Source of the DNA: Pseudomonas fluorescens
GTDB taxonomy: Bacteria > Pseudomonadota > Gammaproteobacteria > Pseudomonadales > Pseudomonadaceae
Assembly (NCBI RefSeq): GCF_001708445.1
Contig: NZ_CP015637.1
Coordinates: forward strand, 4,465,001-4,529,000
Direction: 5' to 3'
Length of the DNA: 64,000 nt
Shown: positions 36,810-50,957 of the stretch, one piece after another
Layout of the letters: every line of letters begins with the position of its first letter
How positions within the stretch are numbered: the stretch's first letter is position 1
Program-made: the position numbers and the translations under genes
The notes under the pieces: model-generated
The model's input: only the letters and a program-made list of their open reading frames with translations
The model's database searches: none
Told to the model about the DNA's origin: nothing

Positions 36810-37688
36810 TCATTTGCGACGTACACGCGGTGCCACGCCGGTCAGATGCTCACGCACGCACGCCCAGGCTGTGTGAAGGCTGTTGCGCAGTGACACGGCA
36901 TCAAGGGTCATGATGCGTAATGAAACCCCGCAATCGTTGGGCAACGCGCTGACACCCAGATAGCGGTCGGGGTGAGCGGGTAGGGCATTGCGCAAGGCTG
37001 TTTTCAACGCTTCGACAGGTAAGCCCTGGCCCACAAGCATAAATGTTGCCAGGGTCTGGAAGGCATGACTGACGCCCGGTAATTGCCGCAGCAGGTCTTG
37101 CCCGCTCAGCGCCAGGCGATCGCCGGCCAGTAAGCGGCCTGCCGGGCAGCGCACTTCCAGGTCGGCGCGGTAGAAATCGAAGAGGCCGGCACTGTCTTGA
37201 GGGGTGTGCAGGCAAAACGCGTCGCACAGCATCACCCTGGCGCCCGGGTGCAGATTCACCCTCACCTGGCTGTACAGGTTTGCCTGGGGAAACAGGATCG
37301 TCGCCATTGGCAGGTACTCCAGCAATGCTCCGCGTTCGGCGGTGAGGCTGACAGTCTGGCGTGCCGATTGCTCGAGCATGCTGTGCGCTACCGTCGCCGC
37401 GCCAGTGCTGACATGGACTTGAGTGTCCGGCCCGGCATGCAGGTGCATCCGCAAATCCTGCCCTGCGAAAATCCCGCCCGAGCACGACTGCACATACACG
37501 GCGGCCATGTCTTTCGGGTCGTCCGGCAGCTTCAGGGTGCGGCCCAGATGAAAGGGATAGCCCACGCGCTGCTCGCTGATATAACTGGCGCCGGACGGCG
37601 CTTTGCTGAAGGCGATCCGGGCCTGCACCGGTGACGATGCCTGGGGCGGGGCAATCAACGGGCGAAGCAGTTGCTGCGGCGCGTTCAT
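36810..37688 (-). CDS. ureD: Urease accessory protein UreD (UreH)
   Basis: 292 residues. Conserved pattern [43 protein letters not shown] and [17 protein letters not shown]. Scaffold that receives UreF and UreG to deliver nickel to apo-urease. Last gene of the urt-ure operon; overlaps ureG by 4 nt. Confidence 0.93.
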
Positions 37689-38338
37689 GGTCGGTCAAAC
37701 AATACGGCGCGGCTGATGGCTTCGACTACCGCGTCGACCCCGTCACCCGTCGCGCAGTTGGTGAACAGCACGGGCCGGCCGTTGCGGGCTTCGGCGGATT
37801 CGCGACGCATGCGTGGCAGATCAACGCCCACATAGGGCGCCAGATCATATTTGTTGACCACCAGCAGATCACAGCTCAACACGCCTGGCCCTCGTTTGCG
37901 CGGGATGTCATCGCCGCCAGCAACATCAATCACAAAGATCCAGTAATCCACCAAGTCCAACGAGAAGGTCGAGGCCAGGTTGTCGCCACCGGACTCAATC
38001 AGGATCAGGTCCAGGTTCTCGAATCGCGCTTCCAGTTCGTCGGCCATTTGCAGGTTCAGCGTCGGGTCTTCGCGGATCGCCGTGTGCGGGCAGGCGCCGG
38101 TTTCTACCGCGAGCACCCGTTGTGGGTCGATCAGGCCGCTGCGCTGCACCCGTTCGGCGTCCTCGCGGGTCGCCAGGTCGTTGGTGATGATGGCCAGTTC
38201 GGTGCCGCGCGCGATGAAGCGCGGAATCAGTTGCTCCAGCAGGCGAGTCTTGCCCGAACCGACCGGGCCGCCAATCCCGACTCGCGCGGCGCCGGGGTGG
38301 GCTTGCGGCTGCGGTACGGCGTGGAATGCAGTGCTCAT
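37685..38338 (-). CDS. ureG: Urease accessory GTPase UreG
   Basis: 217 residues. P-loop GGPVGSGKT at 23-31, the nickel-binding CPH in [13 protein letters not shown], and [13 protein letters not shown] for guanine recognition. GTP hydrolysis powers nickel insertion into urease. 26 nt after ureC. Confidence 0.96.
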
Positions 38339-38364
38339 TATCGGGTTCCTTTTATTGGCTGTGA

Positions 38365-40077
38365 TCAGCGCAACATGTAGCGCTGGGCCAGGGGCACTTC
38401 GCTGACCGGCTCGCAGGTCAAGCGCTCACCGTCGGCGTACACATCGAAGGTCTGTGGGTCGACGCGAATGTCCGGGCAGGCGTCGTTGTGCAGCATGTCG
38501 GACTTGCGCAGGGTGCGGGTGCCGAAGGCCGGCAACAGGACTTTTTTCAGGCCCAGCTTCTCGGCGGTATTGGCCTCTACCGCGAGGCGGTTGACGAAAT
38601 TCACCGACAGCGCCTGTTTGGCTTCACCGAAGGCACCCCATTGCGGGCGCATGATCAGCGGTTCGCAGGTGTACAGCGAGGCTGCCGAGTCGCCCATCAC
38701 GCCGTGCACGATAAAACCGCCCTTGACCACCAGCTCCGGCTTGATGCCAAAAAAGGCAGGGCGCCACAGCACCAGGTCAGCGATCTTGCCCGGCTCCAGC
38801 GAGCCGATATAACTGTCGATTCCGAACACCCGCGCAGCATTGATCGTGTACTTGGCGATGTAACGCTTGATGCGTTCGTTGTCGCCCAATCCGGTTTTTT
38901 CTTCCGGCAAACGGCCGCGTTGGTCTTTCATCTTCGAGGCCAGTTGCCAGGTGCGACAGATCACCTCGTTGATGCGCCCCATGCCCTGGCTGTCGGAGCC
39001 CAGGATCGAAATCGCCCCGGTGTCGTGCAGGATGTCTTCGGCGGCGATGGTCTGCGGACGGACCCTGGACTCTGCGAATGCCACGTCTTCCGGCACGTCC
39101 GGATTGAGGTGATGGCAGACCATGATCATGTCCAGGTGCTCGTCGAAGGTGTTGACGGTGTACGGATTGGTCGGGTTGGTCGAGGAGGGGATGCAGTTGG
39201 ATTTTCCTGCCACGCTGATGATGTCCGGGGCGTGGCCGCCGCCTGCACCTTCGGTGTGGTACATGTGGATCGTGCGGTCGCCGATGGCGGCCAGCGTGTC
39301 TTCGAGAAAGCCCGACTCATTCAGGGTGTCAGTGTGCAGTTGCACCTGAAAGTCGTATTCATCGGCCACCTTGAGGCAGGTATCGATCACGGCGGGCATC
39401 GCGCCCCAGTCCTCGTGGATCTTCAAACCCAGGCAGCCACCACGCAGTTGGCCGAGCAGCGATTCCGGCTTGCTGGAATTACCCCTGCCGAGAAAGCCGA
39501 AATTGATTGGCCAGGCTTCAGAGGCTTGCAGCATCTTGCCAACATTCCATTCGCCGCCGCAGTCGATCCCCACGGTAATCGGCCCAAGCGAGCCGCCGAT
39601 CAGCGTCGTCAGGCCCGCGGCGAGCGCGTGGTCGCAGAGTTGCGCAGAATCGAAATGCACGTGCACGTCGATCCCGCCGGGCGTGACGATCAGGCCTTCA
39701 GCGTCGCGCACGGTGGTTGCGATGCCGCAGATCAGCAGCGGATGCACACCGTCCATGACCTGCGGATTGCCGGCCTTGCCGATGGCTACGATCTTGCCGT
39801 CCTTGATGCCGATGTCGCCTTTGACGATGCCGATCACCGGGTCGATGATCAGCGCGTTGCAGATCAGCATGTCCAGCGCGCCGTCTGCGCTGTCATGCCC
39901 CGGCATCAGGCCCATGCCGTCGCGCAGGGTCTTGCCGCCGCCGTGCAGGCATTCATCGCCGGGCACCGAGTGGTCGAATTCCACCTCGGCCAGCAGCGAA
40001 GTATCCCCCAGGCGCACGGCGTCGCCGGTGGTGGGGCCGTACATCGCGGCGTATTCCTTGCGAGTCATCGTTGCCAT
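38365..40077 (-). CDS. ureC: Urease alpha (catalytic) subunit, divergent type
   Basis: 570 residues. All catalytic positions are present: IDVHVHF (two Ni histidines), GLKIHEDWG (carbamylated Lys and His), [25 protein letters not shown], flap [22 protein letters not shown] with Cys-His, and GSDSQGMGR with the Ni aspartate. However the stretch after the first histidines, [14 protein letters not shown] and [10 protein letters not shown], differs from the usual CPQQ...GGGTGPAAGT of classical ureases. Starts 3 nt after the fused ureAB gene. Confidence 0.94.
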
Positions 40078-40080
40078 GGA

Positions 40081-40782
40081 TCACGCCCCCTTGAACTGTT
40101 GAGCGCGCGCGCGATCGAGCGCGATGGCTTTGCAGGCCGGATCGTGCAGGTTGCCGTTGGTCAAACCGCTGAAACCGTGGATGTCACCCGTGCCGCCGAA
40201 TTGCACCAGGTGCACTTCGCGCAGCTCCCCCGGCTCAAAACGCACGGCGGTGCCGGCGGGAATGTCCAGGTGCATGCCGAAGGCGGCGGCGCGGGGGAAA
40301 TCCAGCGCCTTGTTGACTTCGAAAAAGTGGTAGTGACTGCCGATTTGCACCGGCCGGTCGCCGGTATTGATCGCCCGTACGGTGGTCGTGGGGCGACCGC
40401 TGTTGAGCTGTATATCGCACTCGGGCGAGATGATTTCGCCAGGCGTCGGCATGACGGCCAACGGCAACTGGCCGGGTCGAATCGGCTGATGCACGGTGAC
40501 CAGTTTGGTGCCATCGGGGAACGTACCCTCCACTTGCAGCACCGGCAGCAGATCGGCCACGCCGGGCATGACATCGTCAGTGTTGAGGAGCGTTGAGCCG
40601 AAACTGATCAGCTCGGCCACGCTGCGCCCCTCACGGGCGCCTTCCAGTATTTCATCGGCAATCAGCGCCGAGGCTTCCGGAAAGTTCAGGCGCAGCCCTT
40701 TGGCGCGGCGTTTACGCGAGAGTTCGGCGGCGGTGTACAGCGTCAGCCGCTCAAGTTCGGTGGGCGTCAGCAGCATGTTCAA
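40081..40782 (-). CDS. ureAB: Fused urease gamma-beta subunit
   Basis: 233 residues. Residues 1-105 are a complete gamma subunit ([25 protein letters not shown] ... [16 protein letters not shown]); from about 110 a complete beta subunit ([52 protein letters not shown]). Pseudomonads usually have separate ureA and ureB; fusion is known in Helicobacter and some actinobacteria. Structural part of the same urease as ureC. Confidence 0.95.
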
Positions 40783-40821
40783 GCTCCTGTGTCGGCAGCA
40801 GGCGTTTTCGTGCCTGCCACC

Positions 40822-41577
40822 TCAATTGGCGAAAAGACGGAGGTCCTGGGTTTCGTGACGCATCACGGCAATCTCGGCCATGGGTGTGAAACCGCTGGCG
40901 TCGTCGGGGGCGAGCGGAGCCTCAGCCAGCAGTTGCAGGAGCAAGGGCTGGATATCGGTAAGCACCCGCTGCGCATCCACATGCCCCATTACGCCCAGGC
41001 GCACAGCGGCGCTGACCAGTCCGGTGCATAACCCATGGGCGGCAGCGAGTTGGCAGTGCTCGAGTGGCATGCCGAGACGTTTCCACAGCAGCCCTTGCAG
41101 CACCGGCAAATGCCCCGGCGTTGCTCGGGCGAGCACGTGTTGCTGGTAAGCGGCAGCGCCGGGTGTACCGAGCGCGACATGCACGCCCAGCAACGATTGG
41201 CCAACGCGACGTGAGCCTTGGCGCAGTTCCTCTGCCAGGGTCAGGGCCTCGATGTGACTGTCCAGGTCCATCAGGGTGGCGAGGTCAGCCGCCGCGTGCC
41301 AGGCGGCGCATAAAAACACCCGGTCAAAACTGTTCCAGCGATGGCGCAATTGCCCTTCGACGAAGGCCCGCACCTGAACGCTGCGATCATTCTGCAGCCC
41401 GCGCTGACGGCGCCTGACAGGGACGCGGTCGGTCATCGAGTCGTTCTGCCCCAGGCGTGCATCGGCCACCAGCGTTTCCAGCCCCCATGACCAGGCAACC
41501 GCGCCGCCGGGGAAAAAGCTGTCCGCCTGTTGCAGCGCCAGCAGGCTGCTGCGCAAATCGGCCGGTGCGGCGCTCAT
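40822..41577 (-). CDS. ureF: Urease accessory protein UreF
   Basis: 251 residues. [26 protein letters not shown] replaces the usual LQLxSPALPVGGFSYSxGLE start but keeps the FPGG/GLE pattern; C-terminal helical repeats with [17 protein letters not shown]. UreF gates UreG in the nickel-loading complex. Its start overlaps the ureE stop. Divergent, matching the divergence of ureC. Confidence 0.87.
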
Positions 41578-42014
41578 AGGCGCTGCACCCGGCCGTCCGC
41601 GAGCATCGGCGCCAGACGTTCGAGGTAATCGGCCTGCGGGCCATTCAGCGGGATCCGTAACGTCGTGCCTGCAAAGCGCACGGCCCAGTGCATGTTTCCG
41701 GCGAAATACCCCAGCTCCAGCGCTGCGGCAGCGTCCCTCGGTTGCAGGTCGAGAAACTGCACGTCCTGCATTTGCACGACGATGGCGCGCTGACCGTCGA
41801 GCATCAGCACCGAGCCGTTACGCAGTTGCTGATGGCGCTCCAGCCGAATCGCACAGTCGGTGCCGCGATCACTGGCCAGGCGCAGGCGATGACGCTGAAT
41901 ATCGCTGGCCGACAGGCTGAGGGTTTCGACCTGGCCTGCGTGGCTGAGGTCATGCAAACGGTCGGCGAGGGCAGGGTCGCTGGCCTGGCCCAGAATGCGG
42001 TCAAGGATCAACAT
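41574..42014 (-). CDS. ureE: Urease accessory nickel chaperone UreE
   Basis: 146 residues. N-terminal peptide-binding domain ([27 protein letters not shown]) and metal-binding domain with [14 protein letters not shown], where the His corresponds to the conserved dimer-interface nickel ligand. It lacks the histidine-rich C-terminal tail of Klebsiella UreE, ending LADGRVQRL. First accessory gene after urtE. Confidence 0.88.
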
Positions 42015-42037: not shown

Positions 42038-42727
42038 TCAGATGGTCAGGTAGCGCAGGATGCGCTCGCGGTCGACGGTTTCCCGGACCTCGCTGTGGAC
42101 GAACTCGCCTTTCTCGATGATCAGGTAACGGTCGGCCACTGCCATCGCAAACGACAGCACCTGTTCGGAGACGATCAGCGAAAACCCCCGTTCTTTTTTC
42201 AGCAGGTTCAGGGCCCGGGCGATGTCCTTGATGATCGATGGCTGAATGCCCTCGGTCGGCTCATCCAGGATCAGCACTTTGGGGTTGGACACTAGCGCGC
42301 GGGCAATCGCCACGTGTTGTTGCTGGCCGCCGGAGAGGTTGCCGCCCTTGCGTCGACGCATCTCGAACAGCACCGGGAAGTACTCGTAGATGTAGTCGGG
42401 AATCGGCGCGGCTGGGGCGCCCTGCATGCCCGTGAGGATGTTTTCCTCAACCGTCAGGTACGGAAAAATCATCCGCCCCTGTGGCACGAAGCCCACCCCG
42501 GCGGCCACCCGCTCATAGCTCTTGCTGGCAGTGAGTTCCTGGCCCGCCAGCGTGATGCTGCCGCTACGTGTCGGCAGCATGCCCACCAGGCTTCTGAGCA
42601 GGGTGGTCTTGCCCATGCCGTTGCGACCCATGATCGCCAGGGACTCGGCGGGTGCGAGAGCCAGGTTGAGGTTGCGCAGCACATGGCTGTCGCCGTAATA
42701 CACGTTCAGGTTATTGACGGTCAGCAT
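42038..42727 (-). CDS. urtE: Urea ABC transporter ATPase UrtE
   Basis: 229 residues, LivF-type: Walker A GRNGMGKTTLL, the Q-loop region VPQGRMIFPYLTVEENIL, signature LSGGQQQHVAIARAL, Walker B LILDEPTEGIQP. VPQGRMIFPYLTV is typical of UrtE. 2 nt after urtD. Confidence 0.95.
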   Translation of the reverse strand: MLTVNNLNVYYGDSHVLRNLNLALAPAESLAIMGRNGMGKTTLLRSLVGMLPTRSGSITLAGQELTASKSYERVAAGVGFVPQGRMIFPYLTVEENILTGMQGAPAAPIPDYIYEYFPVLFEMRRRKGGNLSGGQQQHVAIARALVSNPKVLILDEPTEGIQPSIIKDIARALNLLKKERGFSLIVSEQVLSFAMAVADRYLIIEKGEFVHSEVRETVDRERILRYLTI

Positions 42728-42729
42728 GC

Positions 42730-43467
42730 TCAGTGCCCCAGATAGACGTCGATGACGCGAGGATCGTTTTGCACCTGATCCATCGAGCCGTAGGCCAGGG
42801 TTTTGCCCTGGTGCAGGACGGTGACTTTGTCAGCCACTGACTTCACGAACTCCATGTCGTGCTCGATGATCACCATGGCGCGGCCCTTGGCGATACGCTT
42901 GAGCAGGCCCGCGGTCTTTTCCCGTTCGCCTGCACTCATGCCGGCCACCGGCTCGTCCAGCAGCAACAGGTCCGGGCGCTGCATCAGCAACATGCCGATC
43001 TCCAGCCACTGCTTTTGCCCGTGGGACAACAGCCCGGCTTTGCGCCCCAGTTGGTCCTGGAGGAAAATCATCTCGGCGGTCTGCTCGATCTCTGCTTGCA
43101 GGGCCGCGTCTTTGCGGGCGAACAGGCAGTTAAAAATGCCGCGTTTGCCAGGCGATGAGATGTCGAGGTTCTCGCGCACGGTGAGGTCTTCATACACCGA
43201 AGGGTTCTGGAACTTGCGCCCAACGCCCGCGCGGGTGATCTGGTACTCGATCATGTTGGCCAGTTGCAGGTCCTTGAAACGGATGCTGCCGGCACTCGGG
43301 CGGGTTTTGCCGCAGATCATGTCAAGCAGGGTGGTCTTGCCCGCGCCGTTAGGGCCGATCACTACGTGCACCTGGTTTTCTTCGACATAGAAATTCAGGC
43401 TGTCCACTGCCTTGAACCCGTCGAACGACACCGTGAGGTCTTCGACACTCAGCAACAGGCCACTCAT
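42730..43467 (-). CDS. urtD: Urea ABC transporter ATPase UrtD
   Basis: 245 residues, LivG-type: VEDLTVSFDGFKAV, Walker A GPNGAGKTTLLDMICG, LSHGQKQWLEIGM (signature variant typical of UrtD), LLLDEPVAGMSAGE. Overlaps urtC by 4 nt. Confidence 0.95.
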   Translation of the reverse strand: MSGLLLSVEDLTVSFDGFKAVDSLNFYVEENQVHVVIGPNGAGKTTLLDMICGKTRPSAGSIRFKDLQLANMIEYQITRAGVGRKFQNPSVYEDLTVRENLDISSPGKRGIFNCLFARKDAALQAEIEQTAEMIFLQDQLGRKAGLLSHGQKQWLEIGMLLMQRPDLLLLDEPVAGMSAGEREKTAGLLKRIAKGRAMVIIEHDMEFVKSVADKVTVLHQGKTLAYGSMDQVQNDPRVIDVYLGH

Positions 43468-44612
43468 GACTGCACCTCCTGTTGGGCGTGGCCAAGGCGT
43501 TGCAGCAAACCGGCCAGCCCGGTCGGCAAGAACAGCACCACGCCCATGAACAGGAAACCGATGAAGTACTGCCAGAAGTTGACGAAATTTTCCGACAGGT
43601 AGGTTTTGGCCACGCCAATCAACAGCGTGCCGTACACCGCACCCACCAGCGACAGACGCCCGCCAAGGGCTGCGTAAATGACGATTTCGGTCGAGGGGAT
43701 GATGCCCACCAGCGACGGCGACGCGAGGCCGACCTGCAGGGTGAACATCACTCCGCCGAGCGCCGAGATCAGTGCCGCCACGGCAAAGATGAACGCTTTG
43801 AACAGTGCTGTGTTGTAGCCGGAAAACCGCACGCGGTCCTCACGGTCACGGATCGCCACCACCACTTTGCCCAGTCGGCTGCGCAGGATGAACCCGCACA
43901 ACGCCACGCAGCCCAGCAGCAACAGGGTGGTGATCAGGTACAGAATCCAGGGCGTTTGAGGCGTTTGCAGGCTCATGCCAAAGGCGGTCTTGAAGTCGGT
44001 CAGGCCATTGACGCCACCGGTGTAGCCTTGCTGGCCGATGATCATGATCGACATGATCGCCGCCAACGACAGGGTGATGATCGAAAAGTACACGCCGCCC
44101 ACGCGCTTCTTGAAATACGCGTAGCTGAATACAAACGCGAGCAATGTCGGGAGGATGAGGATCGCCGCAAAGGTGAATGTCGCCGACTCGAAAGGCTTCC
44201 ACCACCAGGGCAGCGCGTCGACGCTGTTCCAGATCATGAAGTCCGGCAACGCCGAGCCGTAGAAGGCGGCGAGTGCGCTCGCCGCTTCGTCGGTGGCCGT
44301 GGCTTCAAGTTTCAGGTACATCGCCATCATGTAGCTGCCAAGGCCAAAGAAGATGCCCTGGCCCAGGCTGAGTATCCCGCCGTACCCCCAGATCATCACC
44401 ATGCCCACGGCGCAGAACGCCAGGCTCAAATATTTGCCGGCCAGGCCCAGGCGAAAGTCGCCCAGGCTCAGGGGCAATATCACCAGCAACAGCAGCGACA
44501 GCCAGGCCAGGCTGTGGCGCTCGAGCAACGGCAGCAACCCGGCGCGCAGCCAGCGCGTGGTCGGCGTCGAGGTGCTGGGGCGGGTGAGGGGCGTCTCAGT
44601 CATATCGTTCAT
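43464..44612 (-). CDS. urtC: Urea ABC transporter permease UrtC
   Basis: 382 residues, LivM-type permease with about ten hydrophobic segments, WGYGGILSLGQGIFFGLGSYMMAMYLKLE and GGRLSLVGAVYGTLLIG. The insertion between early TM segments (ATATDEAASALAAFYGSALPDFMIW) is typical of UrtC. Inner membrane. Confidence 0.94.
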   Translation of the reverse strand: MNDMTETPLTRPSTSTPTTRWLRAGLLPLLERHSLAWLSLLLLVILPLSLGDFRLGLAGKYLSLAFCAVGMVMIWGYGGILSLGQGIFFGLGSYMMAMYLKLEATATDEAASALAAFYGSALPDFMIWNSVDALPWWWKPFESATFTFAAILILPTLLAFVFSYAYFKKRVGGVYFSIITLSLAAIMSIMIIGQQGYTGGVNGLTDFKTAFGMSLQTPQTPWILYLITTLLLLGCVALCGFILRSRLGKVVVAIRDREDRVRFSGYNTALFKAFIFAVAALISALGGVMFTLQVGLASPSLVGIIPSTEIVIYAALGGRLSLVGAVYGTLLIGVAKTYLSENFVNFWQYFIGFLFMGVVLFLPTGLAGLLQRLGHAQQEVQS

Positions 44613-44613
44613 C

Positions 44614-45516
44614 TCAGCGTCTCACTTTCGCGGCGAACAAGCCGTTGGGGCGGAAGAACAGCAGCACGATCACCACCAGCAGCGTGATGGCTTTGGCCAT
44701 GGATCCGGTGGTGAGGTATTCCAGCGAAATCTGCGTCTGGCCGATGGCGAAGGCCGACAGGAAGGTGCCCAGCAAACTCTCCACCCCGCCAAACACCACG
44801 ACGATGAAGGTGTCGACCAGGTACTGCTGGCCGCTCACCGGGCCGGTCGAGGCGAGCATGGTGAACGAGCTGCCGGCGATCCCGGCCAGCCCGCAGCCCA
44901 GGGCAAACGTGACCGCGTCGACGCGGGCGGTGTTGATGCCGGCCGCCCCGGCCATGGCGCGGTTCTGGGTCACCGCGCGAATGCGCAAACCCCAGCGGCT
45001 GCGGTACAAAAACAGAAACACGGCGCCGGCGATGACCAGTGTCAGGCCGATGATGAAAATCCGGTTGAGCGGCAGTTCCAGGCCATCGCTGATCTTCCAG
45101 GCGCCTTGCAGCCATTGCACGGTGGGCACGCTGACTTCCTTGGGCCCGAAGACTTGGCGGAACACCTGCTGCAGCACCAACGACAGGCCCCAGGTCGCCA
45201 GAAGCGTGTCGAGCGGGCGGTTGTACATGAAGCGAATAAAGCAGCGTTCGAGCAAGAAACCAAACGCGAAGGTCACGACGAAGGCCACGCCGATGCCGAT
45301 CACGAAATACCAGCCCATGTAGTCGGGAAAGTAGCGCGCAAACACCACGGACGTGACGTAGGTCATGTAGGACCCCATCGCCATCAACTCGCCATGGGCC
45401 ATGTTGATTACGCCCATCAGGCCGAACACGATGGTCAGCCCCAGGGCCATCAGTACCAACACCGAGAACAGCGAGAACCCGCTGAAGACCTGCATCACCA
45501 AAATATCGAAAGTCAT
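44614..45516 (-). CDS. urtB: Urea ABC transporter permease UrtB
   Basis: 300 residues, LivH-type permease. LGLTIVFGLMGVINMAHGELMAMGSYMTYV near the N-terminus and FIVVVFGGVESLLGTFLSAF near the C-terminus. Single-nt spacing to urtC; 79 nt after urtA. Confidence 0.94.
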   Translation of the reverse strand: MTFDILVMQVFSGFSLFSVLVLMALGLTIVFGLMGVINMAHGELMAMGSYMTYVTSVVFARYFPDYMGWYFVIGIGVAFVVTFAFGFLLERCFIRFMYNRPLDTLLATWGLSLVLQQVFRQVFGPKEVSVPTVQWLQGAWKISDGLELPLNRIFIIGLTLVIAGAVFLFLYRSRWGLRIRAVTQNRAMAGAAGINTARVDAVTFALGCGLAGIAGSSFTMLASTGPVSGQQYLVDTFIVVVFGGVESLLGTFLSAFAIGQTQISLEYLTTGSMAKAITLLVVIVLLFFRPNGLFAAKVRR

Positions 45517-45595: not shown

Positions 45596-46777
45596 TCACA
45601 GTTTCGGGAAAGGGTTGGGCTCGATGGGCGCGGACTCGTAGATCACGTCAACCTGACCCTGGGCATTGAGGGTGCCGATACGCGCGCGCTTCCACAGGTG
45701 GTGGTTGTCCTTGTGGACTTTGACCTCGCCTTCAGGCGCGTCGAGGGTCAGTTCCGAGGACGCGGCGATCACGGCCGGGACGTCGAAACTGCCGGCTTTT
45801 TCCACGGCTTTCTTCCACAGGTACACGGCGGTGTACGCGGCAGCCATTGGGTCGCCGACCACGCGTTTGTCGCCATAGCGGGCCTTGAAGGCGGCGACGA
45901 ATTTCTCGTTGACCGGGTTTTTCAGGCTCTGGAAGTAGCTCATGCAGGTGAGAAAACCGGTGAGGTTTTCGGCGCCGATGCCGGTGACTTCTTCTTCGGT
46001 GACGGCCAGCGCCATCAGCGTCTGGTTGCTGCTGTCGATGCCGGCGGCCTTGAGCTGTTTGTAGAACGCCACGTTTGAGCCACCGACGATGGTGGACAGC
46101 ACGATGTCGGGCTTGGCGGCCTTGATTTTGTTGATCACCGAGGAGAACTCGATGTTGCCCAGGGGCAGGTAATCCTCACCGACGATGGATCCGCCCTGCT
46201 TGGTCACCGACGCCCGTGCCAGCTTATTGGTGGTGCGCGGCCAGATGTAGTCCGACCCCACGAGGTAGACGGTCTTGCCTTTGTTGGCCATCAACCAGCT
46301 GACGGCTGCCAGGGTTTGCTGCGACGCTTCGGCGCCGGTGTAGATGATGGCCGGGGATTTTTCCAGGCCTTCATAGAACGTCGGGTAATACAGCAACGCC
46401 TTGTTGCGTTCGAACACCGGCAACACCGCTTTACGCGACGCCGAGGTGAAGGCGCCGAACGTAGCGACAACGTGATCGTTTTCCAACAGCTTGCGCGCCT
46501 TCTCGGCGAAGGTCGGCCAATCGCTGGCACCGTCCTCGACGATCGGTTCGATGGTCTTGCCGAGCACGCCACCGCTGGCGTTGATTTCGTCGATGGCGAG
46601 TTTTTCCGCATCCACCACCGAGGCCTCACTGATGGCCATGGTGCCGGTCAGCGAGTGGATGATGCCGACCTTCACGGTCTCGGCTGCCTGCACCTGGCTG
46701 ACCAGGGAAAACGGCAACAGGCTGAAGGCGCCCAGCAACAGGGCATGCTTGATCAAACGGCGTTTGTCGTTGTGCAT
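45596..46777 (-). CDS. urtA: Urea ABC transporter substrate-binding protein UrtA
   Basis: 393 residues with signal peptide LLLGAFSLLPFSLVSQVQA, then ETVKVGIIHSLTGTMAISEASVVDAEKLAIDEINA, the standard UrtA opening. The internal segment SASRKAVLPVFERNKALLYYP ... EGLEKSPAIIYTGA parallels AmiC, encoded divergently. First gene of an 11-gene operon joining high-affinity urea uptake to urease. Its leader carries a terminator and ANTAR-type hairpins, and a sigma-54-like promoter lies upstream. Confidence 0.95.
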   Translation of the reverse strand: MHNDKRRLIKHALLLGAFSLLPFSLVSQVQAAETVKVGIIHSLTGTMAISEASVVDAEKLAIDEINASGGVLGKTIEPIVEDGASDWPTFAEKARKLLENDHVVATFGAFTSASRKAVLPVFERNKALLYYPTFYEGLEKSPAIIYTGAEASQQTLAAVSWLMANKGKTVYLVGSDYIWPRTTNKLARASVTKQGGSIVGEDYLPLGNIEFSSVINKIKAAKPDIVLSTIVGGSNVAFYKQLKAAGIDSSNQTLMALAVTEEEVTGIGAENLTGFLTCMSYFQSLKNPVNEKFVAAFKARYGDKRVVGDPMAAAYTAVYLWKKAVEKAGSFDVPAVIAASSELTLDAPEGEVKVHKDNHHLWKRARIGTLNAQGQVDVIYESAPIEPNPFPKL

Positions 46778-46795: not shown

Positions 46796-46843
46796 AAAAA
46801 AAGCCCGACATCCCGGCTAAATCAATAGTCGGGAAATCAGGCT
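46796..46843 (-). terminator. Leader terminator directly upstream of urtA
   Basis: On the minus strand AGCCTGATTTCCCG pairs with CGGGATGTCGGGCT (14 positions, two G-T pairs, one mismatch) and is followed by six T. It ends about 18 nt before the urtA ATG, upstream of GGAGA, and therefore lies inside the transcript from the proposed promoter: an antitermination site. Confidence 0.88.
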
Positions 46844-46862
46844 TCTTGTGCCGAATCTGGCG

Positions 46863-46929
46863 GGACAGCTGTGTCCGATCCAGTCGTACGCGAGGTGCTT
46901 CCCTACTTGCCAAGGGGGCGTAGGGCAAA
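46863..46929 (-). promoter_or_regulatory. ANTAR-type leader element of urtA
   Basis: Hairpin 1 (46901-46925): CCCTAC...GTAGGG with inner GCC/GGC. Hairpin 2 (46863-46876): GGAC-ACAGCT-GTCC, hexaloop with A at 1 and G at 4. The block shares most bases, in the same order, with the amidase leader at 49261-49326, including TTTGCC, TACGCC, CTTGGCA and CACC. Confidence 0.75.
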
Positions 46930-46958
46930 CAGCTGGCGCGATGTCTCTGGAGAGTTAT

Positions 46959-46975
46959 AGCAAGGGCAGTGCCAA
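46959..46975 (-). promoter_or_regulatory. Sigma-54 promoter of urtA
   Basis: Minus strand TTGGCAC-TGCCC-TTGCT: GG and GC exactly 10 nt apart and only one base off the consensus TTGGCACG-N4-TTGCT. Upstream of the leader hairpins and terminator. Confidence 0.78.
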
Positions 46976-47084
46976 TTGCGACCAGGGCGTTTTCCGGGCA
47001 GTTGAGGGGAGGGGGCGAGTGACTCCTGCATCTATTGCCGCGTGTCACTGGCCTGCGCTGCTTTGGCGCGAATGCATGATAAAT

Positions 47085-47099
47085 GCACCAATACCGTGA
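47085..47099. promoter_or_regulatory. NtrC-like site
   Basis: GCACCAATACCGTGA matches GCAC-N7-GTGC with one mismatch and lies about 110-125 bp upstream of the sigma-54 element, a normal enhancer distance. Confidence 0.5.
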
Positions 47100-47430
47100 G
47101 CATGTGGGCGGCATGGGTTGGCTCCAAGGCAAGGATTGAAACCGGCTGGCGCCAGGCGAGCAGGTTGCCCGTTGTGTGTGGCCCACTATCTGCATGAGTG
47201 ACAGGCAACACCCTCGCAGGGTCCCTTGTCACACGCCCATCCTCGGCAGGTGTGGAAGGCCCCTCGCATGACTGGCCCTGACAGCGTTGTCGCGCCAGCC
47301 CCAGGCACAACCCGCCTGAGAGCAGCCGTTGCGTTTACACGGCGTCTCGTTCAATCATTTTTTTGCACAGGCCTCCAGACCCCCATCCACGAGCGGGTGT
47401 CTTTTCTCACGTTGAACAAGGTTTATAGGC

Positions 47431-48579
47431 ATGGTTGACCAGTCGATCCGCATAGGCGGTCTGTTTTCCGATACCGGTGTCACGGCGGCTGCCGAGGGCT
47501 CGACGATGCGCGGCGCGCAGTTCGCGATTGCGCAGATCAATGCGGCCGGCGGGGTCGATGGTCGCCCGCTGCAGTTGATCACCCGCAACCCCGATTCAAC
47601 GCCTGCGCTGTACGCCATGCACATCGAATCGCTGATCCGCGAAGAACACCTGCGGTTTTTCTTTGGTTGCTACACCTCGGCTGCACGCAAGGCGGCACTG
47701 CCGATTGTCGAGCGCTACGACGCCCTGTTGCTGTACCCGGTGTATTACGAAGGTTTCGAGTATTCGCGCAACATCATCTACACCGGCGCCACACCGAATC
47801 ACAATGCCTTGCCGCTGGGTAATTACATGCTGGACAACTTCGGCAATCGCGTGTTGATGATCGGTTCCGAATACGTCTACCCGTACGAAACCAATCGCTT
47901 GATGAGCGACCTGTTGTACGAGCGTGGCGGCACCAAGCTGGGCGAGTATTACCTGCCGCTGAAAAATGCGCGGCCGGAAGATTTCGCCAAGCTGATGGTC
48001 AAGGCCAAGGAACTCAAGCCCTCGTTTATTTTCTCGACAGTCGTCGGTGAAACCATGGGGCATTTGTACCAGGCCTACGCCGACGCAGGCTTTGATCCGG
48101 CAGTGATGCCGATTGCCAGCCTGACGACCAGCGAAACCGACATTCAGCAAATGGGTGTTCACCTGGGCGCGGGGCATATTTCGGCGGCTACGTATTTTCA
48201 GTCGGTGGACACGCCGACCAACCGCCAATGCATTGCCCAATACCGCGAGCTGTTTGGTCAGCATCAGGTCACTGACCGTTGCTGGGAGGCGGCCTACTTC
48301 CAGGTGCATTTGCTGGCCAAGGCGATCGTTCGAGCGGGCAGCACTGAAGTGGAGGCTGTGCTGCAGGCCATGCGCGGGCTGGAATTCGAAGCGCCACAAG
48401 GACGCATTCGGATCGATGCCAACAATCACCATACGTACCTGTTTTCGCGGATCGGCCGGGCCAATGTCGAGGGTCAATTCGACATCCTTTACGAAAGCCA
48501 GCGTGCACTCAAGCCTGACCCATATGCCATTGCACCCAATTTCAATGAATGGTCCGGCTCGGTGGGGAGACGTCTATGA
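47431..48579 (+). CDS. amiC: Cytoplasmic amide/urea sensor, AmiC-like
   Basis: 382 residues of the type-I binding-protein fold but without a signal peptide (starts MVDQSIRIGGLFSDTGVTAAAEG), so it stays in the cytoplasm, as AmiC does. YTSAARKAALPIVERYDALLLYP and YTGATPNHNALPLGNYML are typical of AmiC/FmdD. In P. aeruginosa AmiC sequesters AmiR until an amide binds. Similarity to UrtA along the chain suggests a related ligand. Overlaps amiR (ATGA). Confidence 0.88.
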   Translation: MVDQSIRIGGLFSDTGVTAAAEGSTMRGAQFAIAQINAAGGVDGRPLQLITRNPDSTPALYAMHIESLIREEHLRFFFGCYTSAARKAALPIVERYDALLLYPVYYEGFEYSRNIIYTGATPNHNALPLGNYMLDNFGNRVLMIGSEYVYPYETNRLMSDLLYERGGTKLGEYYLPLKNARPEDFAKLMVKAKELKPSFIFSTVVGETMGHLYQAYADAGFDPAVMPIASLTTSETDIQQMGVHLGAGHISAATYFQSVDTPTNRQCIAQYRELFGQHQVTDRCWEAAYFQVHLLAKAIVRAGSTEVEAVLQAMRGLEFEAPQGRIRIDANNHHTYLFSRIGRANVEGQFDILYESQRALKPDPYAIAPNFNEWSGSVGRRL

Positions 48580-49208
48580 CCGTGCGCGCCGCCAAGAAAC
48601 GCCTGCGCAACGACGGTGCCGGTGGCATCAAGGACCTGCGCGACGTCAGCGTATTGGTGATGCACCCGGATGACGAGGATGGACGCAACCTGATCGAACA
48701 GTTGCAGCGCATCGGTTGTCAGGTGCGTGTGCAATGGCCGATTCCGGAGCGCTTGAGCGCTGAGGCGGACGTGATCGTGTTGGCGGTGTCGCCGGAAAGC
48801 CTGTCGACCAACACACCATGGCTGCTGCACGCCAGCACGCCGCCGATCATTCCGGTGATTGCCTATGAGAACCCGATCATTGTCGAGGCATTGGTGCAAT
48901 TGAACGCTTGCTCTGTCATTCCTTCGCCCGTGAAGTCGTTCGGTTTGCTGACCGCGTTGGCGATCACGCTCAGTCAGTCACGCAAGGCCCGCGAACGGGA
49001 AAGGCACGTCAAGCGCCTGGAAGGGCGCATGGCGGTCATGCGCACCGTGCAGCAGGCGAAAATAATCCTCATCGAAACCAAGGGCATGTCGGAGACCGAT
49101 GCCTACAACGCCTTGCGAGATCAAGCCATGGCCAAACGCGAACCGGTGGAAAAAATCGCCGAAGCACTGGTCAAGGCCCACGAGTTGTTCCGACAAGCCT
49201 GTTCCTGA
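48576..49208 (+). CDS. amiR: ANTAR-domain antiterminator, AmiR-like
   Basis: 210 residues from the ATG at 48576, overlapping the amiC stop. N-terminal pseudo-receiver without the usual acidic pocket (DVSVLVMHPDDEDGRNL), a coiled-coil (SRKARERERHVKRLEGRMAV) and a C-terminal ANTAR domain (AKIILIETKGMSETDAYNALRDQAMAKR ... KIAEALVKAHELF). ANTAR proteins bind paired hexaloop hairpins in leader RNA and block termination. Such hairpins occur both 3' of this gene and in the urtA leader. Confidence 0.92.
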   Translation: MTVRAAKKRLRNDGAGGIKDLRDVSVLVMHPDDEDGRNLIEQLQRIGCQVRVQWPIPERLSAEADVIVLAVSPESLSTNTPWLLHASTPPIIPVIAYENPIIVEALVQLNACSVIPSPVKSFGLLTALAITLSQSRKARERERHVKRLEGRMAVMRTVQQAKIILIETKGMSETDAYNALRDQAMAKREPVEKIAEALVKAHELFRQACS

Positions 49209-49221
49209 ACAGTCTTTGAGC

Positions 49222-49243
49222 ATCAAGCTTGTGAAGGCTTGAT
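49222..49243 (+). terminator. Weak hairpin after amiR
   Basis: ATCAAGC-ttgtgaag-GCTTGAT followed by CCTCTTCT, 7-bp stem without a proper T-run; may give partial termination or stabilise the amiCR message. Confidence 0.4.
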
Positions 49244-49260
49244 CCTCTTCTGCGTGGACG

Positions 49261-49326
49261 TTTGCCATACGCCTCACTTGGCAGGTATGGATCACCGCGT
49301 GGCGACCGGCATGGACAATGGAGTCC
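49261..49326 (+). promoter_or_regulatory. ANTAR-type leader element of the amidase gene
   Basis: Hairpin 1 (49265-49290): CCATAC...GTATGG with inner GCC/GGC. Hairpin 2 (49313-49326): GGAC-AATGGA-GTCC, hexaloop with A at 1 and G at 4. Counterpart of the urtA leader; the third base pair of hairpin 1 is A-T here and C-G there, a compensatory change. Confidence 0.75.
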
Positions 49327-49376
49327 TCCGGAGCGAGCCGTAACCTGTGCATTGGGCACGGCCGGTTCGAGTCAAT

Positions 49377-49398
49377 GATCACCCGATATCGGGTGGTT
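49377..49398 (+). terminator. Candidate leader terminator before the amidase gene
   Basis: GATCACCCG-atat-CGGGTGGTT (9 pairs, two or three of them G-T) followed by CTTAAC. The T-run is poor, so this is weaker than the urtA terminator. An alternative hairpin GTGC-attgg-GCAC lies at 49347-49359. Confidence 0.45.
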
Positions 49399-49421: not shown

Positions 49422-50957
49422 ATGTCCGTAAAACGCCCCAGCAAAGCCGATTTTCTGATGGCCGCCGAAGACCACGGTTATCACCTGACAGATAGCCAGA
49501 TGGAGGCCTTCCTCAATCTGGCCGACGAAACGTTGAACGCCTATGAAGCCATCGATGCGCTGTACGCCGCCAACGTCGCGCAGCAACCGCCTGAACGCGA
49601 ATACAACAAAGCCGCCGAGGCAGACAACCTGCACGGCGCCTGGTACGTGAAAACCCGCATCGTTGGAGCGGCGCAAGGGCCATTGGCCGGCAGGACTGTG
49701 GTCATCAAGGACAACGTGTCGGTGGCTGGCGTCCCCATGGCTAACGGTTCATTGAGCCTGGACGGGTATATCCCGTCCGAAGACGCCACTGTGGTCAAAC
49801 GCTTGCTGGCGGCCGGGGCCACGGTGGTCGGCAAGTCGGTGTGTGAAGACTTGTGTTTCTCCGGGGCCAGTTTCACCTCCGCCAGCGGCCCGGTTAAAAA
49901 CCCGTGGGACCTGACGCGCAATGCAGGCGGCTCGTCCAGCGGAAGCGCGGTGCTGGTGGCGCTTGGCCAAGTAGACATGGCCATCGGCGGCGATCAGGGC
50001 GGTTCGATCCGGATGCCGTCGGCCTGGAGCGGCATCGTCGGGCACAAACCGACTTACGGCCTGGTGCCTTACACCGGGGCGTTCCCGATTGAGCGAACCA
50101 TCGATCACGTGGGCCCGATGGCCAATAACGTGCGCGATGTGGCAGTGATGCTCGATGTCATTGCGGGAGCCGATGGGCTTGATTCCAGGCAAAAGAGTCC
50201 ACCCGCGGTCAACTGCCTCGCGACGCTGGACCAGGGCGTTGCCGGCTTGAAGATCGGCTTGCTGCGAGAGGGGTTTGCGATCCCGGGGATGTCCGAGCCG
50301 CAGGTGGATGCGCTGGTCAAGGCGGCGGTTGCCCAGCTTGAAAGCCTGGGCGCCAGTGTCGGCGAAGCGAGTGCTCCGTGGCACACGGGCGTGGCATTGG
50401 ATCTGTGGAACGTGATTGCCACTGACGGCGCGGCGTATCAGATGTTGCAGGGCAATGGTTACGGCATGAACGTCGACGGTTATTACGACCCGGACATCAT
50501 GAGTTACTTCGGCGAAAAACGCCGTGAACACGCGGATGCGTTGTCCAGTAGCGTGCGAGCGGTCGCGTTGACCGGTCACTACAGCCTGAAAAACCTGCAT
50601 GGCGCCTACTACGCCAAGGCGCGGATGCTGGTACCGGAGCTGACGCGCCAGTACGACGAGGCATTCAAGGATTTTGATGTATTGGTGCTGCCCACCATGC
50701 CCTTCGTAGCCACGCCGTTGACCGCCGCGGATGCGCCCGTCGAGGAGTACGTGCACAGTGCACTGGACATGCTCGCCAATACCGCGCCGTTTGACCTCAC
50801 GGGGCACCCCGCGACGTCGATCCCGGCGGGGCTTGCGGACGGCTTGCCGGTAGCCATGATGATCGTTGCCCCGCGTTTCCAGGACGCCCTCGCATTACGC
50901 GTTGCCCAGGCCTACGAACACGCCCGTGGCGCATTCCCTAAACCCCCGGCGCTGTAA
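49422..50957 (+). CDS. Amidase signature family amidase
   Basis: 511 residues from the ATG at 49422 (TTGGAG upstream). Ser-cisSer-Lys triad visible: Lys in VVIKDNVSV, cis-Ser in GGSSSGSA, catalytic Ser in GGDQGGSIRMPS. N-terminal helical extension (KADFLMAAEDHGYHLTDSQMEAFLNLADETL) as in the enantioselective amidases linked to nitrile hydratase in Rhodococcus and Pseudomonas. Hydrolyses amides to acids plus ammonia. It takes the place of the unrelated nitrilase-fold AmiE found after amiCR-type genes in P. aeruginosa. Confidence 0.92.
   Translation: MSVKRPSKADFLMAAEDHGYHLTDSQMEAFLNLADETLNAYEAIDALYAANVAQQPPEREYNKAAEADNLHGAWYVKTRIVGAAQGPLAGRTVVIKDNVSVAGVPMANGSLSLDGYIPSEDATVVKRLLAAGATVVGKSVCEDLCFSGASFTSASGPVKNPWDLTRNAGGSSSGSAVLVALGQVDMAIGGDQGGSIRMPSAWSGIVGHKPTYGLVPYTGAFPIERTIDHVGPMANNVRDVAVMLDVIAGADGLDSRQKSPPAVNCLATLDQGVAGLKIGLLREGFAIPGMSEPQVDALVKAAVAQLESLGASVGEASAPWHTGVALDLWNVIATDGAAYQMLQGNGYGMNVDGYYDPDIMSYFGEKRREHADALSSSVRAVALTGHYSLKNLHGAYYAKARMLVPELTRQYDEAFKDFDVLVLPTMPFVATPLTAADAPVEEYVHSALDMLANTAPFDLTGHPATSIPAGLADGLPVAMMIVAPRFQDALALRVAQAYEHARGAFPKPPAL

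What the first reader, a model, noticed from the sequence alone, without database searches (positions are those of the whole stretch)
46796..49398. One ANTAR antiterminator may control both urea uptake/urease and an amidase through twin RNA leaders
Seen directly: the leaders of urtA (minus strand 46929-46863) and the amidase gene (49261-49326) share a block of about 66 nt with TTTGCC, TACGCC, CTTGGCA and CACC in the same order. Hairpin 1 is CCATAC/GTATGG in one and CCCTAC/GTAGGG in the other (compensatory change). Hairpin 2 is GGAC/GTCC in both, and its different hexaloops (AATGGA, ACAGCT) both keep A1 and G4. In the urtA leader a strong terminator follows. Known: ANTAR proteins such as AmiR bind hexaloops with A1 and G4 and prevent termination. 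Inferred: AmiR, encoded between the leaders, switches on both the 11-gene urt-ure operon and the amidase when AmiC binds its ligand. I know of no description of AmiCR acting on urease/urea transport.
Basis: partly seen in the sequence, partly recalled or inferred. Interest (0 to 1): 0.88.

Follow-up and report, generated by a model that had tools for sequence, protein, structure and literature searches.

The report
Shared RNA switch for urea genes
Three copies of one orphan RNA element sit in front of a urea-uptake/urease operon, an amide-sensing regulator pair and an amidase gene in a Pseudomonas, and comparison with relatives suggests that the regulator encoded between them switches these genes on through that RNA.

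Summary
The two look-alike leaders are real, and a third, missed one lies before amiC. All three pass the Rfam threshold for livK RNA (RF01744, an orphan cis-regulatory family) and are the only ones found in the genome. The RNA travels with the neighbouring AmiC-AmiR pair: the 9 livK genomes of a 249-genome genus sample are exactly those with a full-length AmiR at least 90% identical. In 83 copies the second livK hairpin has G at loop position 4 (83) and A at position 1 (78), while the other positions vary: the ANTAR signature. Before urtA a third small hairpin overlaps a strong terminator in 28 of 28 copies, and a sigma-54-like site precedes the RNA. AmiR therefore most likely antiterminates the 11-gene urt-ure operon, and probably its own. 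There are no binding data. New variant of a known kind; my searches found no paper linking livK to ANTAR.

The parts
46960..46974 (-). sigma-54-like promoter site of urtA, TGGCACTGCCCTTGC
   Evidence: 10 of 10 consensus positions, ends 23 nt before the livK start; 28 of 28 copies of this class score at least 8 of 10. Promoter function is inferred.
46854..46936 (-). livK RNA copy 1, urtA leader (P1 and P2)
   Evidence: Rfam RF01744, 79.9 bits
46863..46876 (-). P2 hairpin GGAC-ACAGCT-GTCC, loop with A1 and G4
46840..46852 (-). P3 hairpin GGC-ACAAGAA-GCC, overlaps the 5' arm of the terminator (proposed antiterminator)
   Evidence: 28 of 28 copies of this class
46796..46846 (-). intrinsic terminator of the urtA leader
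   Evidence: -27 kcal/mol, z -6.89; 28 of 28 copies of this class
45596..46777 (-). urtA, urea-type binding protein
   Evidence: PF13433; substrate inferred from the urease genes behind it
42038..45516 (-). urtB, urtC (permeases), urtD, urtE (ATPases)
   Evidence: ORFs; Pfam; synteny
36810..42014 (-). ureE, ureF, fused ureAB (gamma-beta), ureC, ureG, ureD
   Evidence: ORFs; Pfam; synteny
47179..47193 (+). sigma-54-like promoter site of amiC, TGGCCCACTATCTGC
   Evidence: 8 of 10 consensus positions; 28 of 28 copies of this class score at least 8. Function inferred.
   Evidence: Rfam RF01744, 84.9 bits
47302..47318 (+). P3 hairpin CAGGC-ACAACCC-GCCTG of the amiC leader
   Evidence: P3 in 28 of 28 copies; the terminator behind it is weak
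47431..48579 (+). amiC, ligand-binding partner of AmiR
   Evidence: PF13433; PDB 1pea, E 3.8e-94
48576..49208 (+). amiR, ANTAR antiterminator
   Evidence: AmiR_N and ANTAR; PDB 1qo0 AmiR, E 3.7e-25; 6wsh EutV
49254..49334 (+). livK RNA copy 3, between amiR and the amidase gene
   Evidence: Rfam RF01744, 66.0 bits; no sigma-54-like site in 0 of 27 upstream stretches
49313..49326 (+). P2 hairpin GGAC-AATGGA-GTCC of the amidase leader
49380..49395 (+). weak terminator-like hairpin CACCCGATATCGGGTG in the amidase leader, poor U tract; part of the system only if it terminates
   Evidence: -9.2 kcal/mol; the same hairpin passes the criterion in 4 of 27 copies
49422..50957 (+). amidase-signature enzyme
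   Evidence: PF01425; PDB 3a1k, E 1.1e-180

Best explanation
The three livK RNAs are targets of the AmiR encoded between them. A sigma-54 promoter (nitrogen limitation) starts the urt-ure and amiC transcripts shortly before the RNA. Without ligand, AmiC holds AmiR, and RNA polymerase stops at the terminator before urtA. When AmiC binds its ligand (urea or a small amide), the AmiR dimer binds the A1/G4 loop of livK hairpin P2 and helps the next hairpin, P3, to form; P3 takes the 5' arm of the terminator, so urtABCDE-ureEF(AB)CGD is transcribed. The same element before amiC gives feedback on amiC-amiR-amidase, and a third copy before the amidase tunes that gene by a readout that I cannot identify. 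Shown: the RNAs, their structure and conservation, promoter-like sites, the urtA terminator, protein families. Inferred: AmiR binding, P3 as antiterminator, ligand, transcription starts, regulation.
For: Co-occurrence: the 9 livK genomes of 249 are exactly those with a full-length AmiR at least 90% identical; the other 240 give at most 36% identity, apart from one 91% identical fragment without livK. A model finds the RNA in 29 of 29 loci with AmiR at least 57% identical and in 0 of 51 at 49% or less at E below 0.01; 11 of the 29 had given training copies, 18 had not. The window's genome has only two ANTAR matches. Loop information in 69 distinct six-base-loop cores: position 4 2.00 bits, position 1 1.62, others at most 0.51. 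P2 has G4 in 83 of 83 and A1 in 78 of 83. EutV residues that contact the loop (Tyr164, Lys149, Glu160, Arg168, Met172, Arg175; passages of PMC8934654) align with Tyr177, Lys162, Glu173, Arg181, Met185, Arg188 (read by me). P3 overlaps a terminator in 28 of 28 urtA-side leaders. Sigma-54-like sites before 28 of 28 urtA-side and 28 of 28 amiC leaders. The RNA stays with AmiR when the target genes differ: before ureE in Stutzerimonas kunmingensis, before a paralogous transporter in P. bohemica.
Against: No binding or expression data. The cluster is inherited as a block (urtA at E below 1e-150 in 6 of 119 genomes, all with livK), so co-occurrence is not independent proof. P3 has G4 in only 6 of 56 copies, against the strict dual-hexaloop rule. 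EutV contacts Arg142, Lys147, Asn173 and Arg177 are not kept (Met155, Gln160, Ala186, Pro190). The amiC terminator passes my criterion in 8 of 28, of which only 2 are the expected hairpin alone and 2 more contain it; the window passes by another hairpin. The amidase class passes in 14 of 27, but 10 of these hairpins run over the start codon and 4 (window included) are one weak hairpin with a poor U tract; forcing P2 raises predicted ribosome-site access by more than 0.2 in only 4 of 27. P1, the most elaborate part, has no role in this model.
Confidence: 0.72

Rival explanations
1. livK RNA is a riboswitch that binds a small molecule itself, and linkage to AmiR is incidental. P1, with its ACGCC/GGCA apex and two-base bulge, would be the pocket.
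For: P1 is highly conserved and has no place in the ANTAR model. The 2010 table row for livK reads y, y, ? (that the last column means 'switch' is recalled).
Against: Found only together with this AmiR clade in the samples searched; the invariant loop positions of P2 are those of ANTAR targets; only two short hairpins in the core.
Confidence: 0.12
2. AmiR controls only amiC-amiR-amidase; the urtA copy is a relic and urt-ure is controlled by sigma-54/NtrC alone.
For: The studied AmiR acts on an amidase operon (passages of PMC3369931).
Against: The urtA leader has the clearest terminator and P3 (28 of 28), and the copy on the urt/ure side is the one found in the most divergent loci, L114 and L115.
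Confidence: 0.07
3. AmiR binds all three copies, but in the amidase leader it acts on translation, RNA processing or Rho-dependent termination rather than on an intrinsic terminator. Compatible with the main explanation.
For: No P3 of the urtA/amiC kind (23 of 27 without any match, 4 with an unrelated match) and no conserved terminator; in the window fold the P2 region pairs with the ribosome site and start codon (my reading).
Against: Accessibility test weak: mean 0.22 to 0.31, above +0.2 in 4 of 27 and not in the window.
Confidence: 0.45
4. The second ANTAR protein of the genome (G000:C1:4812504, outside the window) is the regulator of livK.
For: It exists in the same genome.
Against: It is not linked to the RNA; a second ANTAR match of the same score range is also in G059, which has no livK. 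78 livK-less genomes have only weak AmiR-like hits, not shown to be the same gene.
Confidence: 0.04

Closest known systems
Rfam RF01744 livK RNA (Weinberg et al. 2010, PMC2864571; one table row seen)
   Same: All three leaders score above the gathering threshold; listed for Pseudomonadales.
   Different: The passages seen give no regulator or mechanism; here the genes are urt/urease, amiC and amidase, and P3 and terminator lie outside the Rfam model.
AmiC-AmiR antitermination in P. aeruginosa (PDB 1pea, 1qo0)
   Same: Homologous AmiC and AmiR; leader and ligand-sensing partner.
   Different: Three leaders instead of one (that the classical system has one is from passages of PMC3369931); targets are urea transport, urease and an amidase-signature enzyme; livK P1 is extra. 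I did not obtain the P. aeruginosa amiE leader.
EutV dual-hexaloop leaders (PMC3369931, PMC8934654; passages, and part 1 of section 10 of the former)
   Same: A1/G4 loop; the next hairpin overlaps the terminator stem.
   Different: Second loop has G4 in only 6 of 56 copies and is often 7 nt; an additional long P1 hairpin precedes.
Predicted ANTAR leaders before urea transporters (Ramesh et al. 2012, one passage)
   Same: Same physiological target named.
   Different: The passage names no organism for urea; its supplementary tables could not be read here, so overlap with Pseudomonas is possible.

Membership tests
livK RNA (RF01744) | covariance-model score at or above 65 bits | tested here: met
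   84.9, 79.9 and 66.0 bits
ANTAR dual-hexaloop leader | a hairpin with a six-base loop with A1 and G4 | tested here: met
   P2 in all three window copies; over 83 copies G4 in 83, A1 in 78; 6 copies have a 7-base loop
ANTAR dual-hexaloop leader | second hexaloop with A1 and G4 overlapping the terminator | tested here: not met
   P3 overlaps the terminator before urtA (28 of 28) and begins with A in 55 of 56, but position 4 is A in 49, G in 6, T in 1; the amidase class has no such P3. Hence: works like an ANTAR leader, not filed as a canonical member.
ANTAR dual-hexaloop leader | intrinsic terminator downstream | tested here: inconclusive
   urtA side 28 of 28; amiC 8 of 28, 2-4 by the expected hairpin; amidase 14 of 27, none convincing
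ANTAR dual-hexaloop leader | bound by an ANTAR protein, relieving termination | not testable with these tools
   needs gel shift and transcription assays
AmiR | AmiR_N plus ANTAR domains | tested here: met
   PF21332 105.2 bits, PF03861 49 bits
AmiC | PF13433 protein close to P. aeruginosa AmiC, gene next to amiR | tested here: met
   cytoplasmic location is inferred, not tested
AmiC | amide ligand and AmiC-AmiR complex | not testable with these tools
   ligand (urea or amide) unknown

The most novel reading that the evidence does not exclude
livK RNA is a new class of ANTAR target: one canonical A1/G4 hexaloop, a non-canonical terminator-overlapping hairpin, and a long conserved hairpin (P1) that is itself recognised by AmiR or by a second signal; with sigma-54 promoters it forms an AND gate by which one antiterminator switches urea uptake, urease, an amidase and itself.
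Probability: 0.4. Interest if true: 0.75.

Novelty: new variant of a known kind. Interest (0 to 1): 0.62.

Why it matters
It would give an orphan Rfam RNA a regulator and a mechanism, extend the AmiCR system from amide breakdown to urea uptake and urease, and offer a natural test of the single-hexaloop model of ANTAR recognition, because P2 is canonical and P3 is not. Urease in these pseudomonads would then need two signals, nitrogen limitation and an amide or urea ligand.

Tried and rejected
Hairpin 1 as an ANTAR hexaloop: rejected. Among 74 distinct cores its apical loop has 4 to 8 bases (one core not matched), and none of the 12 six-base loops has A1 and G4.

Translational control of the amidase by exposure of the ribosome site: tested with forced P2 on 27 of 27 leaders; mean access 0.22 to 0.31, above +0.2 in 4, not in the window. 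Weak. For comparison urtA (26 of 28 analysed) 0.59 to 0.66 and amiC (28) 0.38 to 0.38.

Canonical amiE leaders as a positive control: an AmiE search gave 29 of 119 genomes; upstream stretches of 20 of the 29 showed no hexaloop leader. The P. aeruginosa amiE leader was not obtained.

My first sigma-54 pattern was wrongly spaced and found 0 everywhere; a position-scored scan replaced it. Background of that scan: 55 sites scoring at least 8 of 10 on the two strands of the 64-kb window.

The simple terminator scan found 3 sites against 2.6 expected and did not find the urtA terminator; energies are used instead. For amiC I read a longer stem by eye in an alignment of 21 of 28 copies. The seven left out were L088 and L108-L113, among them divergent ones; on all 28 the motif GCCTGAGAGC...G(C/T)TCA is in 25 and missing in L109, L111 and L113.

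Literature: searches (listings; of long lists only the first 20 or 25 were seen). No held paper has both 'ANTAR' and 'livK' as whole words or the phrases 'livK RNA' or 'livK motif'. RF01744 occurs in two papers: PMC2864571, passages seen, and PMC3765529, listing only. Supplementary tables could not be read.
Full report
Observation. Both are members of Rfam family RF01744, livK RNA, above its threshold, and a third and best-scoring member lies before amiC at 47218-47301 (alignments). A whole-genome search finds exactly these three at E up to 0.001.

Genes. On the plus strand lie amiC, amiR and an amidase. AmiC matches P. aeruginosa AmiC (1pea, E 3.8e-94), AmiR matches AmiR (1qo0, E 3.7e-25) and EutV (6wsh, E 5.9e-5), and the amidase matches 3a1k (E 1.1e-180).

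Distribution. livK matches are in 9 of 249 sampled genomes of the genus (all above the Rfam cut-off), 5 of 248 of the family sample (own included; 4 above the cut-off) and 1 of 194 of the order sample (own only). My model from 36 copies gives 1 of 274 in the class sample (own only). An AmiR search over the same 249 genus genomes matches 100 of them; full-length matches of 90% or more are in exactly the 9 livK genomes. One of these has a second AmiR (59%) on the contig that carries a weaker, fourth livK match (48.9 bits). G059 has a 91% fragment and no livK; the remaining matches are at most 36% identical. Gene order is conserved in 7 of 8 fetched relatives; the eighth is cut by a contig end. 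Of 80 named AmiR loci (the best 80 of 127), 29 have AmiR at 57% or more and all 29 carry livK; 51 have 49% or less and none does at E below 0.01 (best 0.32). Eleven of the 29 are loci whose copies trained the model, so 18 of 18 is the count outside training, though these are close relatives. Complete trios are in 24 of 29; L094 and L100 lack the urtA side at contig ends, L113 lacks the amidase copy, L114 and L115 have one copy each. UrtA at E below 1e-150 was in 6 of 119 genus genomes, all livK genomes, so the cluster moves as a block and the co-occurrence is not independent proof of function. The Fisher tests ignore relatedness and are given no weight.

RNA structure. In 36 copies all cells of 16 pairs are paired and 6 pairs show double changes, above shuffled and slid controls. 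P1 has an apex ACGCC...GGCA with a two-base bulge. P2 has a loop with A1 and G4. Over 83 copies (80 from the 29 loci, 3 from the window; 74 distinct cores), G4 is present in 83 and A1 in 78; the five exceptions have G1 and are all before urtA; 6 copies have a 7-base loop. Among 69 distinct six-base-loop cores, positions 4 and 1 hold 2.00 and 1.62 bits and the others at most 0.51. In the EutV-RNA structure G4 stacks on Tyr164 and A1 makes no specific contact (passages of PMC8934654), which fits G4 being the stricter of the two. Tyr164, Lys149, Glu160, Arg168, Met172 and Arg175 have identical counterparts here; Arg142, Lys147, Asn173 and Arg177 do not (read by me).

Terminator. After P2 a third hairpin, GGC-ACAAGAA-GCC before urtA and CAGGC-ACAACCC-GCCTG before amiC in the window, is matched in 28 of 28 and 28 of 28 copies of these classes (the urtA-side class includes L114 before ureE and L115 before a paralog). 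Its loop starts with A in 55 of 56 and has A, G or T at position 4 in 49, 6 and 1. In the amidase class 23 of 27 have no match and 4 an unrelated one. Before urtA the 3' arm of P3 overlaps the terminator in 28 of 28 (the terminator hairpin alone is -21.8 to -28.7 kcal/mol); stepwise folding of the window leader shows P3 before the terminator is complete and the terminator afterwards. Before amiC 8 of 28 pass my terminator criterion: L088 and L099 by the expected GAGC/GCTC hairpin, L089 and L090 by a larger structure that contains it, and L087, L109, L111 and the window by others. The amidase class passes in 14 of 27: four (window, L088, L089, L090) by one weak hairpin with a poor U tract, ten by hairpins that run over the start codon. 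The translational alternative is only weakly supported.

Promoters. Sigma-54-like sites end 23-24 nt before livK in 51 of 56 urtA-side and amiC leaders (range 17-26 in all 56) and reach the threshold in 0 of 27 amidase leaders. The third livK is therefore probably intercistronic (inference).

Wider picture. In Burkholderiales with distant AmiR, seven aligned urtA upstream regions (of nine printed) share another leader: a hairpin CTGCC-A.....-GCCAG and a terminator. If read as a hexaloop, position 1 is A in 7 of 7 and position 4 is G in 5 and A in 2; but the stem has a mismatch, RNAalifold draws a four-base loop, and my hexaloop scan did not flag it. L116 and L119, with amiCR divergent from urt, have long hairpins with loops AACGGT and AAAGGC shortly before a terminator, while L117 has no such hit; the scan also flags other hairpins there. 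This suggests, by eye and on selected loci, that AmiCR control of urt is older than the livK form.

Prior knowledge. The 2010 table row for livK reads y, y, ?, Pseudomonadales, RF01744 (PMC2864571; column meanings recalled); Rfam types it as cis-regulatory. Ramesh et al. 2012 predicted ANTAR leaders before urea transporters in general terms (one passage; part 1 of section 10). No held paper has both ANTAR and livK.

Verdict. The leaders are livK RNAs (near certain).

Noticed in passing
39629-39927 +: Rfam hit to 5_ureB_sRNA (RF02514, 49.2 bits, gathering 40) antisense to ureC; may reflect only conserved urease coding sequence.
   Followed up: no
L114:8385-8858 (Stutzerimonas kunmingensis): livK lies directly before the urease operon (ureE first) instead of before urtA, next to amiCR 55-64% identical.
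   Followed up: partly
L066/L115 (P. bohemica): A second, paralogous amiCR with a urt-like transporter and its own weaker livK RNA in a genome that also has the main cluster.
   Followed up: partly
L067:10599-10892 (G059): A truncated AmiR remnant (84-91% identical, C-terminal half) in a genome without livK.
   Followed up: no
49209-49253 + and the same place in relatives: In the rows seen (its output was cut), a hairpin with differing but self-complementary arms, followed by CCTCTTCTGCG, precedes the amidase livK; possibly the end of the amiCR message or a processing site.
   Followed up: no
L140, L142, L145, L146, L148, L150, L151, upstream of urtA: Burkholderiales urt-amiCR clusters share another conserved leader (hairpin plus terminator), a candidate second ANTAR leader family.
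   Followed up: partly
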